A DNA stretch of 64,000 bases from Anaerostipes caccae L1-92. Lineage in GTDB: Bacteria; Bacillota; Clostridia; Lachnospirales; Lachnospiraceae. The notes below the pieces were generated by a model that was given only the letters and a program-made list of their open reading frames with translations, made no database searches and was not told the origin of the DNA. The DNA is taken from assembly GCF_014467075.1 (NCBI RefSeq), contig NZ_AP023027.1:2173501-2237500 (forward strand). The letters are read 5' to 3'. Positions 9,485 to 12,911 of the stretch are shown piece by piece (the stretch's first letter is position 1; every line of letters starts with the position of its first letter). A program made the translations under genes and the position numbers.

Positions 9485-10501
9485 CTACTTTATCTTCACC
9501 TGTTCTATGTTTTTAATGATGATCGTGCTTCCTCCCCCCTGTTCTTCCAGGATCTCTACATTGTCTTTTGTAATATATTCTTCCATTGGGATCTTGACCT
9601 CGATCCCCGCGTCGGTCTCAAGAATCTGATATTCCAGCTTCTTTACGGTATTTTCTTTGGCCACCGTAAAGGTATCATACTGCAGGTCATATCTCTCGAT
9701 GCGGTCATCAAACTCCTGTTTCTTCTCCGTGCTGTCCCCAAAGATCCTGTCGCCGATCTCGTTGACCCGAAACTCATTTTTTTCCGCAAATTCTTCTCTC
9801 AGCTTACTCCTGGCATCCAGCCGGTTTCTCAGCGGTTCATTCTCGTACCGGTTATTGATATCCGTGATCACCTTGTTTAAGATCTGGAATTTCTTTTTGG
9901 GAGCCATATCTGCGTGGCACTGGAGAAAGCGCTCAGAAATATAGTTTATCTTGTCGCCTGTCAGCATCTCAAACTTCTTCTCCACCAGCTGGACTTTATA
10001 CTCCAGAAGATCCACAATTACAGCCTCCGTGAGCTTTGCCCCGTCCATAGGCATCACCCGCTGCTTTACAATGTCGTTGACTTCATTTTCTTCCTCTTTA
10101 TGTATGTAAGTCTCCTTATAATTCATTTTCAGAAGCGCCAGATGTACAACACTGTATAACTGGAAACTGACCACGATCAGATCTGCCGCCGGAATTGTCA
10201 CACTGTCGCACATAATATCAAAAAGACTCTCCGACAGTACACGGCTGGCTTCCACAAAGCTTTCATCCTCCTTTTCATCCATCGATTCCAAAAGGCTTAA
10301 GACCGGTGAAAGGCTTCCGTCAAACTGGCATTTTTTTGTGTCATCACTCTCCAGGATCTTAAATATATGGCCCCTGATAAATTCCATCAAGTCCGGTCCC
10401 AAATCCAGCAGGTCGTTGGACAGTCCAAGATACCCGTTGTGGCTGTCCAGAATATGGATAATCCCTTTTCTTATGATAATATCATCTCTCTGTATCTGCA
10501 T
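9485..10501 (-). CDS. 37-kDa nucleoid-associated protein (NdpA/YejK family)
   Basis: A protein of 338 residues of the NA37 family, known from Escherichia coli YejK as a nucleoid-bound protein of unclear function. Landmarks are the N-terminal IQRDDIIIRKGIIHILD, LGLSNDLLDLGPDLMEFIRGHI, and the central PAADLIVVSFQLYSVVHLAL. I place the start at 10501 (MQIQRDD) because AGTAGG lies six bases upstream; the ATG at 10507 abuts that motif. The gene stands alone, with terminators on both sides. Confidence 0.8.
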   Translation of the reverse strand: MQIQRDDIIIRKGIIHILDSHNGYLGLSNDLLDLGPDLMEFIRGHIFKILESDDTKKCQFDGSLSPVLSLLESMDEKEDESFVEASRVLSESLFDIMCDSVTIPAADLIVVSFQLYSVVHLALLKMNYKETYIHKEEENEVNDIVKQRVMPMDGAKLTEAVIVDLLEYKVQLVEKKFEMLTGDKINYISERFLQCHADMAPKKKFQILNKVITDINNRYENEPLRNRLDARSKLREEFAEKNEFRVNEIGDRIFGDSTEKKQEFDDRIERYDLQYDTFTVAKENTVKKLEYQILETDAGIEVKIPMEEYITKDNVEILEEQGGGSTIIIKNIEQVKIK

Positions 10502-10545
10502 GTTCATCCTACTTTCTATTAAATTTTCTTTGACCATTATACTAG

Positions 10546-10576
10546 AAAAAATCCGTCCGGACAACTCCGGACGGAT
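10546..10576 (-). terminator. Terminator of the PPEP-like protease gene
   Basis: A perfect 11-bp stem (ATCCGTCCGGA and its complement, loop GTTG on the minus strand) is followed by a run of T on the minus strand. It lies 18 bp beyond the stop at 10595. Confidence 0.85.
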
Positions 10577-10594: not shown

Positions 10595-11383
10595 TTACAT
10601 TTCTGCAAGGACATTTTTGACATATTCATAGGCTCTCGGGCAGTGGCTCTTTAAAGAAGCTCTGTTCATAGAATACTCTTTAAATACCTCTGCAAAGAAC
10701 TCTTTGTTGTTTGATACCGCATATGCTCTGTTGTCGCCGGCAAAATTGTTCTTTTCTGCATTATAGATCGCTCTGAACTCTGCTGTGGAATCAGCTCTGT
10801 TGTTTACATATGCTACGAAGTGTCCTACCTCATGAATCAAAACTCTGTTGACATTATTCTTTACAACGATTTTTTTCTGAGATGGACTGAAGACTCCGTC
10901 TGCCCCTTTCAGTAAAGAAGAATTTGGATTTGTCTCGATGGCCATTCCCACTCTGTTGAATTCGCTGATTACCTTGTCATCGACAATCCCCTTCAGCTGG
11001 CTGATATTTGCGTTTCCTGCCTGTGCAAGATTTGTTGTTTTGATGACCTTCTTAATGGTTGTTGTTGTTTTGACCGTTTTTTTCTTTGCTTTTTTTGTTG
11101 TCTTTACAACAATATCCGTCTGAACTGTCTCTTCTACTTTTTTAGATACGCTTGTGATCACTTTTTTAGAAGTTTTTTTCGTTTTTTTGGTTGTGACTTT
11201 TTTGCGTTTTACTTTTTTCTTTAATTTATATGTCTTTGTTTTAACTTTTTTGGATGTACTTGTTTTGACTGTTACTTTACTGCTGGCTGCCTTCACAGGT
11301 GCTGCTGCGGCCGGAGCTGTGAATCCGACAACAAGCAAAACTGCCAATGCACTTACTAAAACTTTTTTGATTGCTTTTTTCAT
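10595..11383 (-). CDS. Secreted zinc metalloprotease of the lethal-factor-like / Pro-Pro endopeptidase type
   Basis: A protein of 262 residues. It has a signal peptide (1-28, AAAA end), a Lys/Thr-rich stretch at 36-115 that looks like a wall-binding or spacer segment, and a catalytic domain at 120-262. LIHEVGHFV gives His184, Glu185 and His188; KEFFAEVF (Glu228) is the likely third zinc ligand. The tail, FFAEVFKEYSMNRASLKSHCPRAY in pieces, closely resembles the C-terminus of Clostridioides difficile Zmp1/PPEP-1. That protease cuts adhesins and is under c-di-GMP riboswitch control. The start at 11383 is chosen because AGGAGG lies nine bases upstream; an ATG two codons earlier is too close. Two c-di-GMP-I aptamers precede it. 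Cleavage specificity cannot be read from sequence. Confidence 0.8.
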   Translation of the reverse strand: MKKAIKKVLVSALAVLLVVGFTAPAAAAPVKAASSKVTVKTSTSKKVKTKTYKLKKKVKRKKVTTKKTKKTSKKVITSVSKKVEETVQTDIVVKTTKKAKKKTVKTTTTIKKVIKTTNLAQAGNANISQLKGIVDDKVISEFNRVGMAIETNPNSSLLKGADGVFSPSQKKIVVKNNVNRVLIHEVGHFVAYVNNRADSTAEFRAIYNAEKNNFAGDNRAYAVSNNKEFFAEVFKEYSMNRASLKSHCPRAYEYVKNVLAEM

Positions 11384-11442
11384 GATCATGCGCCTCCTAT
11401 ATTTCATAGACACAAGCCAGTGACCATCCTGATCTCTGGTAC

Positions 11443-11475
11443 GAAAAAAGCACTCTGCTTATTTCATAACACATG
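11443..11475 (-). terminator. Terminator of the promoter-distal c-di-GMP riboswitch
   Basis: On the minus strand, GTTATGAAATAAGCA pairs with TGCTTTTTTCGTAC around a GAG loop, with one mismatch and one bulge, and the T run lies in the 3' arm. It sits between the second aptamer and the start codon, where an expression platform is expected. A further hairpin (CATGAG / CTCATG) links it to the aptamer. Confidence 0.6.
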
Positions 11476-11489
11476 AGCTTTCCTCATGC

Positions 11490-11570
11490 GGCAACCGGCT
11501 ATCGTAATCTCTTAGAGATCTTAGACCCTTGGCTTTGTGTCACTACCTTTCGATAGTTTTACTAAATATT
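11490..11570 (-). promoter_or_regulatory. Cyclic di-GMP-I (GEMM-I) riboswitch aptamer, promoter-distal copy
   Basis: On the minus strand it shows the GEMM-I landmarks in order: AGTAAAACT, a hairpin ACTATC-GAAA-GGTAGT with a GNRA tetraloop, GACACAAAGCC, the receptor AAGGGTCTAAG, a variable stem, and the closing AGCCGGTTGCC. The ligand-contacting G at the Vc2 G20 position appears kept. Compared with the common GCAAAA...GGCGC form, a C-G pair seems replaced by T-A. It precedes the PPEP-like protease gene by about 110 nt. Confidence 0.88.
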
Positions 11571-11679
11571 AAATTACTGATTAATTAACTTATCATTTCT
11601 GATGTGATTCTGTGCAGAATATTAATTAATCCAGCTTTATGAAATTTGGAGCATCTATCCGGAAGTAACCCTTCCAAAT

Positions 11680-11716
11680 AAAAAAACCATCTGCAAAAAA
11701 TTCTTTACAGACGGTT
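11680..11716 (-). terminator. Terminator of the promoter-proximal c-di-GMP riboswitch
   Basis: A 13-bp stem (AACCGTCTGTAAA with TTTGCAGATGGTT, two G/T wobbles) is followed by seven T on the minus strand. It lies between the two aptamers, so transcription must pass two checkpoints before the gene. Confidence 0.85.
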
Positions 11717-11773
11717 GCGCTTATAATCATATAAGATAGATAATTATTATCCATACACATTAATATATAATGT

Positions 11774-11860
11774 GGCAACCGGCTGTCATAATCCCCGTTT
11801 GGAGGACCTTAGACCCTTGGCTTTGTGTCACTATCTTTCAATAGTTTTACCGATGAATAA
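11774..11860 (-). promoter_or_regulatory. Cyclic di-GMP-I (GEMM-I) riboswitch aptamer, promoter-proximal copy
   Basis: On the minus strand: CGGTAAAACT, hairpin ACTATT-GAAA-GATAGT, GACACAAAGCCAAGGGTCTA, a TCCTC/GGGGA stem, then TATGACAGCCGGTTGCC. It matches the other aptamer at nearly every conserved position but differs in the variable stem, as expected for an old duplication under selection. It has its own terminator about 60 nt downstream. Confidence 0.9.
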
Positions 11861-11906
11861 TTCAATTGTATGATAAGACCCAGTTAGCTATTCTTATCTT
11901 AATTCT

Positions 11907-11935
11907 ATTGTATGCTCTCTTTCACACTTTGTCAA
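11907..11935 (-). promoter_or_regulatory. Sigma-A promoter of the riboswitch-protease transcript
   Basis: On the minus strand TTGACA (11930-11935), a 17-nt spacer and TACAAT (11907-11912). Transcription would start near 11900, giving a leader of about 515 nt that contains both aptamers. Confidence 0.75.
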
Positions 11936-11963: not shown

Positions 11964-12911
11964 TTAATTTTTAATGCAATGATTATTTTTTACGCGTTTA
12001 TAGATCTCTTTGCTTCCTTTATACTTTGACGGTGTACAGCCCATTTTTTTCTTGAATACCTCAGTAAAATAGCTGCTTCCTGAAAAACCCGTTTTCTGTG
12101 CAATCTCTGTCATTGAGTACGTTCCTTCCTCAATCAAAATCAGGCTCCTGCGTATCCTGTATGTATTTACATATTCAATCGGACTTTCTTTCACCACATT
12201 TCTGAACATCCTGCAGCACTCACTCTGGCAGGACTGACATATCTCAGCGATATCTTTCAGGGTAATTTTCTTTGTATAATTTCTTTGTATATATGAAATT
12301 CCCTTTCTGATCCTCTCTGCATCTTTATTTATTGAGACAGCATTCCCTTTTTCTTCCCCCAGAGCCTTGACAAACTCCAGCCAAAGCAGGGAAAAGCCCG
12401 ACGTCATCATCAGTTCAAATCCCTCCGGTCTCTCCTCATATATGCGGATTAGTTCTGCCAGCTGTCGCATCAGCCGTTTCTGCCATGGAATATCACCGTA
12501 AAACGGCACACAAGAGATCTCCGGATTGTTTATGACCGGTTCCATGAACTTTCGGTAGATCAGGCTTTCGGTACTTCCTCCCAGAAAAAAAGCTTCTGCC
12601 CTAACAACACCGAATCTGCACTCCAGTTTTCCTTTCATCTCAGCCATATGAAGTACATTCTGATTGATAAAAATTCCGTCTCCCTTTTTTAATTCATAAA
12701 CCCGGTCCCCTGCCTCATAGATACATTCCCCTTCTGTGATGACAGAGAATTCAATTTCAGGGTGCCAGTGACACCGAAAATACCGATTATAATATCTGAA
12801 AAAGCTGTCGCTGCTGGCCCATATGGGAAATCGCTGGTCCAAAGTCTGATTCAATTCTCTGAAATTCTGATCTGTTTCAATTTGCCTCAATATATTCGCC
12901 CTCTCCTTCAT
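11964..12911 (-). CDS. AraC-family transcriptional regulator with an N-terminal cupin domain
   Basis: A protein of 315 residues. The N-terminal half (about 45-130) is a cupin-type ligand domain with HWHPEIEFSVITEGECIY. The C-terminal 100 residues hold two helix-turn-helix units: ITLKDIAEICQSCQSECCRM, and SMTEIAQKTGFSGSSYFTEV followed by FKKKMGCTPSKY. Such regulators usually control sugar-use genes and sense a sugar through the cupin. The annotated ATG lacks a good ribosome binding site; a TTG at 12890 is preceded by GGAGAGG at eight bases and could be the true start, removing seven residues. The neighbouring HAD phosphatase gene is divergent and is a candidate target. Confidence 0.9.
   Translation of the reverse strand: MKERANILRQIETDQNFRELNQTLDQRFPIWASSDSFFRYYNRYFRCHWHPEIEFSVITEGECIYEAGDRVYELKKGDGIFINQNVLHMAEMKGKLECRFGVVRAEAFFLGGSTESLIYRKFMEPVINNPEISCVPFYGDIPWQKRLMRQLAELIRIYEERPEGFELMMTSGFSLLWLEFVKALGEEKGNAVSINKDAERIRKGISYIQRNYTKKITLKDIAEICQSCQSECCRMFRNVVKESPIEYVNTYRIRRSLILIEEGTYSMTEIAQKTGFSGSSYFTEVFKKKMGCTPSKYKGSKEIYKRVKNNHCIKN

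What the first reader, a model, noticed from the sequence alone, without database searches (positions are those of the whole stretch)
11443..11935. Two c-di-GMP-I riboswitches in series, each with its own terminator, before a secreted protease
The sequence shows two complete GEMM-I aptamers (11774-11860 and 11490-11570), a strong terminator after each, and a TTGACA-17-TACAAT promoter. Tandem aptamers can give a steeper or two-input response. Both copies share TAAAACT...GACACAAAG, which looks like a compensated C-G to T-A change from the usual form, so they are kept by selection. Both appear to retain the G that separates c-di-GMP from cGAMP specificity.
Basis: partly seen in the sequence, partly recalled or inferred. 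Interest (0 to 1): 0.8.

Follow-up and report, generated by a model that had tools for sequence, protein, structure and literature searches.

The report
Paired unlike c-di-GMP riboswitches before protease
Two RNA sensors for a bacterial signal molecule sit in a row before the gene of a secreted protease, but they are not twins: the second carries the single-base change that in other bacteria shifts the sensor towards a different signal, and it may act by a different route.

Summary
The two aptamers are real: RF01051 hits of 70.5 and 72.2 bits, with a conserved promoter. (1) Only the upstream copy keeps the specificity-setting G (Vc2 G20, model position 11). The downstream copy has A, the base of 3',3'-cGAMP sensors. 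This holds in 5 of 5 related tandem leaders: copy 1 always G, copy 2 always A. (2) Only copy 1 has a strong terminator (-14.8 to -20.6 kcal/mol in 5 of 5). The hairpin after copy 2 is -2.6 kcal/mol. Copy 2's core can instead pair with a stretch about 120 nt downstream that overlaps a Shine-Dalgarno-sequestering strand.
Most likely this is a serial OFF leader of a PPEP-like secreted metalloprotease: c-di-GMP terminates transcription at copy 1, and copy 2, with relaxed or weaker specificity, adds a later gate, perhaps on translation. No known cGAMP-synthase signature was found. Tandem c-di-GMP-I riboswitches are well known, as is c-di-GMP-I repression of PPEP-1. The conserved G/A pairing with unlike platforms is a new variant. 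Ligand and mechanism of copy 2 are untested.

The parts
11907..11935 (-). sigma-70-type promoter TTGACA-17-TACAAT
   Evidence: 11 of 12 consensus positions; conserved in 5 of 5 related leaders, spacer 17 or 18
11872..11898 (-). 5' hairpin of the leader, GATAAG...CTTATC
   Evidence: coordinates; in the MFE; arms differ but stay complementary in the second pair of this genome (read by eye)
11771..11861 (-). copy 1 c-di-GMP-I aptamer, G at the Vc2-G20 position (window 11851)
   Evidence: RF01051 70.5 bits; base at position 11
11775..11781 (-). CGGTTGC in the 3' part of aptamer 1: antiterminator strand
   Evidence: 7 of 7 pairs with GCAACCG downstream; 7 of 7 pairs in all 5 leaders, once through a G-U
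11756..11774 (-). small hairpin after aptamer 1 (CACATTA...TAATGTG)
   Evidence: present in 5 of 5 leaders
11680..11720 (-). switching strand GCAACCG and intrinsic terminator 1 (stem 11716-11685, then T-run)
   Evidence: -14.8 to -20.6 kcal/mol in 5 of 5 leaders
11487..11573 (-). copy 2 c-di-GMP-I aptamer, A at the Vc2-G20 position (window 11563)
   Evidence: RF01051 72.2 bits; base at position 11
11531..11541 (-). core strand GACACAAAGCC of aptamer 2 that can pair with 11418-11409
   Evidence: duplex -12.8 kcal/mol
11470..11490 (-). small hairpin after aptamer 2 (CGCATGAG...CTCATGTG)
   Evidence: -2.6 kcal/mol; not listed by the terminator scan, whose rule of 3 G-C pairs it cannot meet
11409..11418 (-). 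GGCTTGTGTC: partner of the aptamer-2 core, overlaps the strand that sequesters the Shine-Dalgarno region
11408..11414 (-). TGTGTCT, pairs with AGGCGCA at 11395-11389 over the Shine-Dalgarno region
   Evidence: pair probabilities 0.70-0.83 free, 0.83-0.96 with aptamer formed
11393..11398 (-). Shine-Dalgarno AGGAGG, before ATG at 11389-11387 and ATG at 11383-11381
10595..11383 (-). secreted PPEP-like zinc metalloprotease (PF07737), Lys/Thr-rich N-terminal half, start chosen at the second ATG
   Evidence: PF07737 48.8 bits over cut-off 27.4 (on the ORF from 11413); Pro-Pro endopeptidase of C. difficile is the nearest solved structure

Best explanation
It is a two-stage OFF leader for a secreted PPEP-like metalloprotease. 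Stage 1: the upstream c-di-GMP-I aptamer (G20 type) works like C. difficile Cd1. Without c-di-GMP its strand CGGTTGC pairs with GCAACCG and blocks the terminator; with c-di-GMP the aptamer holds CGGTTGC, the terminator forms and transcription stops. Stage 2: transcripts that pass meet a second aptamer with A at the G20 position. It most likely still responds to c-di-GMP, with lower affinity or relaxed specificity that also admits 3',3'-cGAMP, so the two copies have different thresholds. Its platform is not a strong terminator. The likeliest platform is translational: in the ligand-free RNA the core GACACAAAGCC pairs with GGCTTGTGTC and frees the Shine-Dalgarno; in the bound RNA GTGTC sequesters it and translation is lowered. 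Shown by computation: aptamers, bases at position 20, promoter, terminator 1 and its antiterminator strand, conservation of the G/A order. Inferred: direction of both switches, ligand of copy 2, translational step.
For: Aptamers, with 97.8% of 273 cells paired and 13 of 21 pairs with two-sided changes over 13 aptamers. G in copy 1 and A in copy 2 in 5 of 5 leaders, the 3 single aptamers of this genome all G. Terminator 1 and antiterminator complementarity in 5 of 5. Aptamer-2 core against the region before the Shine-Dalgarno: best of all 11-nt windows of aptamer 2, reached by 3 of 5000 mononucleotide shuffles and 0 of 3000 dinucleotide shuffles, in the relative G010 by 10 of 3000. Shine-Dalgarno unpaired 0.44 with the aptamer formed, 0.77 with the alternative helix forced. 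Relaxed specificity: a natural A variant elsewhere gained c-AMP-GMP binding with perhaps only slight loss for c-di-GMP (PMC9481103, passages). Thirty GGDEF matches in this genome, the 23 readable ones with the canonical Asp. In the relative G009 a copy-1-like aptamer sits directly on a copy-2-like platform, as if the tandem had contracted, which suggests that the platform is functional (read by eye).
Against: The unconstrained fold of the window RNA does not contain the alternative helix: aptamer 2 pairs with the coding region instead, and the Shine-Dalgarno is then unpaired 0.48, hardly more than the 0.44 with the aptamer formed. Ensemble energies are -65.0 unconstrained, -62.6 alternative helix, -59.4 aptamer forced. 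In G010 the alternative helix is in the free MFE, but the Shine-Dalgarno is no more open (0.26 against 0.23 with the P2 helix forced), and there the partner also overlaps a weak terminator, so the translational step is not conserved by this measure. The alternative helix was noticed before it was tested. Shuffled cores match the real region as well in 22 of 3000 and 21 of 3000. The weak hairpin and T6 after copy 2 keep stem and T-run in G006 while the loop changes, so a leaky terminator is possible. No binding or expression data.
Confidence: 0.45

Rival explanations
1. Plain pseudo-cooperative tandem: both copies bind c-di-GMP alike and each terminates transcription, giving a steeper response.
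For: 347 doublets and 12 triplets of c-di-GMP-I are catalogued (PMC9481103 passages); the triple tandem Bc3-5 is more digital (PMC4759541 abstract); weak hairpin plus T6 after copy 2 is kept in G006; G010 copy 2 keeps an antiterminator-like partner GTAACCG.
Against: Copy 2 has A, not G, in 5 of 5; its hairpin is -2.6 kcal/mol; no 7-pair antiterminator partner after copy 2 in the window (best 6 pairs, 4 of them Watson-Crick).
Confidence: 0.22
2. Two-input gate: copy 1 senses c-di-GMP, copy 2 is selective for 3',3'-cGAMP, and either signal shuts the protease gene off (NOR).
For: A at this position is the cGAMP-class base (PMC6274999; PMC9481103); G20A GEMM-I is listed as a c-AMP-GMP sensor (PMC11352751 table passage); A in copy 2 in 5 of 5; G-then-A pairs also in an Oscillospiraceae MAG, twice.
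Against: No GGDEF with Ser/Thr at the Hypr position among 23 readable of 30, no SMODS cyclase. G137, a relative with A-form and no G-form pattern match, also has none among 12 readable of 17. The A form is frequent in the family (40 of 397 genomes by pattern). cGAMP-class riboswitches are described from gram-negative bacteria (PMC9262584).
Confidence: 0.18
3. Copy 2 is a decaying second riboswitch: the A and the weak platform are loss of function, and copy 1 does the work.
For: Weak hairpin after copy 2; own_B copy 2 has lost the GAAA loop.
Against: Copy 2 scores as well as copy 1 (72.2 against 70.5 bits) and the helices covary over a set that includes five copy-2 aptamers; the same A is kept in 5 of 5 while other positions change.
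Confidence: 0.13

Closest known systems
C. difficile Cd1 c-di-GMP-I riboswitch (transcriptional OFF switch; PMC9262584, first part of the introduction and passages read)
   Same: aptamer class, strand of the aptamer that pairs with the 5' arm of the terminator, OFF direction by anatomy; Cd1 is also described with a hairpin HP1 besides P2 and the terminator
   Different: single copy, other gene; the second copy here has another binding-site base and another platform
C. difficile zmpI/PPEP-1 (CD630_28300) mRNA with a class I riboswitch, negatively regulated (PMC6366702, passages read)
   Same: c-di-GMP-I leader before a secreted PPEP-type metalloprotease, predicted OFF
   Different: two unlike copies here; the protein matches PPEP-1 only over residues 191-268; the surface proteins of this genome also lie behind c-di-GMP-I, and no RF01786 hit was found (whose controls did not ring either)
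B. thuringiensis Bc3-5 triple-tandem c-di-GMP-I riboswitch (PMC4759541, abstract and outline read)
   Same: complete c-di-GMP-I riboswitches in series before one gene
   Different: described as three riboswitches with similar structures; here binding-site base and platform differ between copies
3',3'-cGAMP (GEMM-Ib, c-AMP-GMP) riboswitches (PMC6274999, PMC9481103, PMC8835794, passages read)
   Same: A at the G20 position in copy 2
   Different: first P2 pair is G-C, not C15-G40 as in the Geobacter structure; no cGAMP synthase signature found; gram-positive host; associated gene is a protease
SAM-II/SAM-V bi-mechanism tandem (PMC9481103, passages read)
   Same: first riboswitch terminates, second is thought to act on translation
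   Different: here both aptamers are of one structural class; the translational step is only predicted

Membership tests
c-di-GMP-I riboswitch (RF01051) | score above the family's gathering cut-off over the full model | tested here: met
   both copies, 70.5 and 72.2 against 35 bits, model 1-87
c-di-GMP-I riboswitch (RF01051) | G at the ligand-contacting position (Vc2 G20), copy 1 | tested here: met
   window 11851, 5 of 5 leaders
c-di-GMP-I riboswitch (RF01051) | G at the ligand-contacting position (Vc2 G20), copy 2 | tested here: not met
   A at window 11563, A in 5 of 5 leaders
c-di-GMP-I riboswitch (RF01051) | binds c-di-GMP | not testable with these tools
   needs in-line probing
3',3'-cGAMP riboswitch | A at the same position | tested here: met
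   copy 2 only
3',3'-cGAMP riboswitch | binds cGAMP in preference to c-di-GMP | not testable with these tools
   needs in-line probing
3',3'-cGAMP riboswitch | known cGAMP synthase in the genome (Hypr GGDEF or SMODS cyclase) | tested here: not met
   no Ser/Thr at the Hypr position in 23 readable of 30 GGDEF matches, 7 unreadable; no SMODS match
pseudo-cooperative tandem riboswitch | two complete aptamers of one class in series before one gene | tested here: met
pseudo-cooperative tandem riboswitch | each copy has its own strong intrinsic terminator | tested here: not met
   strong after copy 1, -2.6 kcal/mol after copy 2
bi-mechanism tandem riboswitch | second copy controls Shine-Dalgarno access | tested here: inconclusive
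   window: unpaired 0.44 aptamer formed, 0.77 alternative helix, but 0.48 unconstrained; no difference in G010
Pro-Pro endopeptidase (PPEP-1 type) | PF07737 domain and similarity to PPEP-1 | tested here: met
   48.8 bits over cut-off 27.4; 6r56 E 9.7e-6 over residues 191-268
Pro-Pro endopeptidase (PPEP-1 type) | cleaves Pro-Pro bonds in surface proteins | not testable with these tools
   needs an assay; the five surface-protein ORFs read near the single switches hold four PP dipeptides in all

The most novel reading that the evidence does not exclude
A gram-positive gut bacterium uses a natural two-signal RNA gate built from one aptamer scaffold: a c-di-GMP aptamer acting on transcription followed by a cGAMP-selective single-base variant acting on translation. 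Either signal would silence a secreted protease, and the bacterium would make cGAMP by an unknown synthase.
Probability: 0.15. Interest if true: 0.8.

Novelty: new variant of a known kind. Interest (0 to 1): 0.45.

Why it matters
A survey of tandem riboswitches counts 347 c-di-GMP-I doublets as one kind. In the passages read, its list of two-ligand pairs has c-AMP-GMP together with AdoCbl and none with c-di-GMP-I (PMC9481103). If G/A doublets are common, part of the catalogued doublets may be two-threshold or two-signal devices. The frequent A form in this gram-positive family (40 of 397 genomes by pattern), with no known cGAMP synthase signature in the genomes looked at, gives a direct test: either A at this position does not by itself mean cGAMP, or these bacteria make cGAMP in an unknown way.

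Tried and rejected
Idea that the hairpin strand TCATGTG after copy 2 mimics and sequesters the start codon: rejected, the hairpin holds it (unpaired 0.01 free and with aptamer formed). Idea that the three surface-protein genes behind single switches are the protease's substrates: not supported, four PP dipeptides in five ORFs (the PPEP-1 cleavage motif is recalled, not looked up). ON or OFF direction of the three single switches: looked at by eye only, not settled, so not claimed. Tree of 13 aptamers: too short, copies 1 and 2 not resolved (copy 1 needs 3 changes, copy 2 needs 2; no starred branch). PF07737 search of the own genome gave no match although the window has one, so that result says nothing. 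PyrR, trpB and snoRNA hits lie below their gathering scores. Unlike pairs outside the genus: G092 and G188 are A then G, two pairs of one Oscillospiraceae MAG are G then A; L046 and L059 are G-G. By position in the pattern lists, G309, G350 and a second G092 pair are G-G and G271 is A-A; the two G270 pairs could not be typed. L109, L122 and L123 were fetched because of their A, so these numbers are biased, and the list was cut.

Full report
OBSERVATION. The window's minus strand holds two c-di-GMP-I aptamers: 11861-11771 (70.5 bits) and 11573-11487 (72.2 bits), gathering score 35. A promoter-like site lies at 11935-11907 (11 of 12 positions). A strong hairpin with a T-run follows the first copy (11716-11685; -15.3 to -16.1 kcal/mol by the ends taken). 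The promoter scan found 14 sites against 8.2 expected from shuffles, and the terminator scan 2 against 2.0, so by themselves those scans prove nothing. What carries weight is conservation: TTGACA and a -10 of 5 or 6 matches, 17 or 18 apart, in 5 of 5 related leaders, and a terminator of -14.8 to -20.6 kcal/mol in 5 of 5.

CORRECTION 1, BINDING-SITE BASE. In the RF01051 alignment, position 11 is the unpaired base directly 5' of the first P2 pair. In the 3',3'-cGAMP riboswitch structure that place is A14, followed by C15 (P2 runs from C15 to G40), with A41 next (PMC6274999, passages). In Vc2 it is G20; the G20A mutant binds cGAMP (PMC6274999; PMC7288161 table passage). That Rfam position 11, A14 and Vc2 G20 are one place is my reading of the same geometry; the Vc2 numbering is partly recalled. 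Copy 1 has G there, copy 2 has A. Over the five tandem leaders found in the genus search of 11 genomes (two in this genome, two in the near relative G006, one in G010) copy 1 is G in 5 of 5 and copy 2 is A in 5 of 5. The three single aptamers of this genome are G in 3 of 3. The five leaders are related, so they are not five independent events.

CORRECTION 2, PLATFORMS. Copy 1 has the Cd1 layout: CGGTTGC of the aptamer pairs 7 of 7 with GCAACCG (once GCAGCCG, through a G-U) 63-70 nt downstream in 5 of 5 leaders, and GCAACCG is the 5' arm of the terminator. For Cd1 the same competition is described, with ligand binding promoting the terminator (PMC9262584). After copy 2 of the window there is no such partner (best 6 of 7 with 4 Watson-Crick), and the hairpin before T6 has -2.6 kcal/mol. 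The core strand GACACAAAGCC (11541-11531) can pair with GGCTTGTGTC (11418-11409), -12.8 kcal/mol. In the 45-nt region before the Shine-Dalgarno the match is reached by 3 of 5000 mononucleotide shuffles, and in the 46-nt region by 0 of 3000 dinucleotide shuffles. It is the best of all 11-nt windows of aptamer 2. That stretch overlaps TGTGTCT, which pairs with AGGCGCA over the Shine-Dalgarno. With the aptamer formed the Shine-Dalgarno is unpaired 0.44, with the alternative helix forced 0.77. This is a sensible translational OFF platform, but four results weaken it: the unconstrained fold of the window RNA uses pairings with the coding region instead, with the Shine-Dalgarno unpaired 0.48; in G010 the alternative helix is in the free MFE but the Shine-Dalgarno is not freed (0.26 against 0.23); shuffled cores fit the real regions as well in 22 and 21 of 3000; and I found the helix before testing it.

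HOMOLOGY. The helices of the aptamers covary: over 13 aptamers 97.8% of 273 cells pair and 13 of 21 pairs have two-sided changes, no shuffle of 500 reaching either. The sequences are related, so this number is not a probability. The genome has a second tandem pair with the same order. G009 has one aptamer like copy 1 sitting on a platform like copy 2 (by eye), which looks like contraction of a tandem. A single-aptamer tree is too weak to order these events.

WHO. Family-wide, 135 of 397 genomes have RF01051, 8 of 11 in the genus. The G010 leader equals, by eye, that of a named Anaerostipes MAG (L125), so the window is most likely from Anaerostipes (inference).

HOW COMMON IS THE A. A pattern for the A form matches in 40 of 397 genomes and for the G form in 106 of 397 (a few matches do not look like aptamers, and the reversed control pattern rings in 7 and 6 genomes, counted by me from the tables). 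The pattern asks for a GAAA loop and so misses some aptamers. So A is not rare in this family, and A alone does not prove cGAMP sensing. In this genome 30 GGDEF matches are found. In 23 the residue that is Ser in Hypr enzymes (PMC6456294, passages) can be read, and it is Asp in all 23; seven were unreadable. In G137, which has A-form and no G-form pattern matches, 12 of 17 are readable and all Asp (one by eye). In G010 and G319, 35 matches gave 30 loci, of which 20 are readable: 19 Asp (one by eye) and one Asn; no Ser or Thr. No SMODS match in the own genome, while 3 of 14 control genomes rang. A natural A variant in Desulfobacca improved c-AMP-GMP binding with perhaps slight weakening for c-di-GMP (PMC9481103). 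I therefore favour relaxed or weaker c-di-GMP sensing for copy 2 over a pure cGAMP sensor.

GENE. The ORF behind the leader is a secreted PF07737 protein (48.8 bits), nearest among solved structures to C. difficile Pro-Pro endopeptidase over residues 191-268, with a Lys/Thr-rich stretch after the signal peptide (sequence). In C. [quoted passage not shown] Here no class II hit was found (nothing rang in the controls either), and single class I switches precede three large surface-protein genes. Whether those are ON switches is not settled.

NOVELTY. Tandem c-di-GMP-I riboswitches are known in hundreds (PMC9481103), and c-di-GMP-I control of PPEP-1 is known. I saw no report of a c-di-GMP-I/c-AMP-GMP-type doublet in the listings and in the passages of PMC9481103 and PMC12452182 that I read. 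The two founding papers on cGAMP riboswitches were not held, so the claim is limited to that.

Noticed in passing
G000:C1:3083808-3084162 (L001, L007): Second tandem pair of c-di-GMP-I aptamers in the same genome, with the same G-then-A order and the same first platform.
   Followed up: partly
G000:C1:96124 (L011), 742221 (L010), 3209373 (L009): Three single c-di-GMP-I aptamers, all with G, each upstream of a large secreted surface protein (1375 aa with SpaA and collagen-binding domains, 1001 aa with Big_2 domains, 896 aa without Pfam match), each with a terminator-like hairpin between (by eye).
   Followed up: partly
L122 1699-1893, L123 694-449: One Oscillospiraceae MAG with two separate doublets in which a G-type and an A-type c-di-GMP-I aptamer stand nearly head to tail (0 and 37 nt between the model matches), before what look like secreted proteins.
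   Followed up: partly
L015 1501-1661 (genome G009): Single riboswitch that looks like aptamer 1 fused to the copy-2 platform, a possible contraction of the tandem.
   Followed up: partly
family sample: A at the G20 position of c-di-GMP-I is frequent in this gram-positive family (40 of 397 genomes by pattern), including genomes with no G-form pattern match such as G137 and G319.
   Followed up: partly
window 11872-11898: Hairpin at the very 5' end of the transcript whose arms change together between the two tandem loci (by eye); perhaps mRNA stability.
   Followed up: no
window 11345-11573, minus: In the predicted unconstrained fold, aptamer 2 pairs with the first codons of the protease gene (GGTTGC with GCAATC, TAAAACT with AGTTTTA); could be chance, and could not be compared with relatives.
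   Followed up: no
window 9485-10564 and 11964-12911: Neighbours are a 37-kD nucleoid-associated protein (NA37) downstream and an AraC-type regulator upstream, no obvious link to the protease.
   Followed up: no
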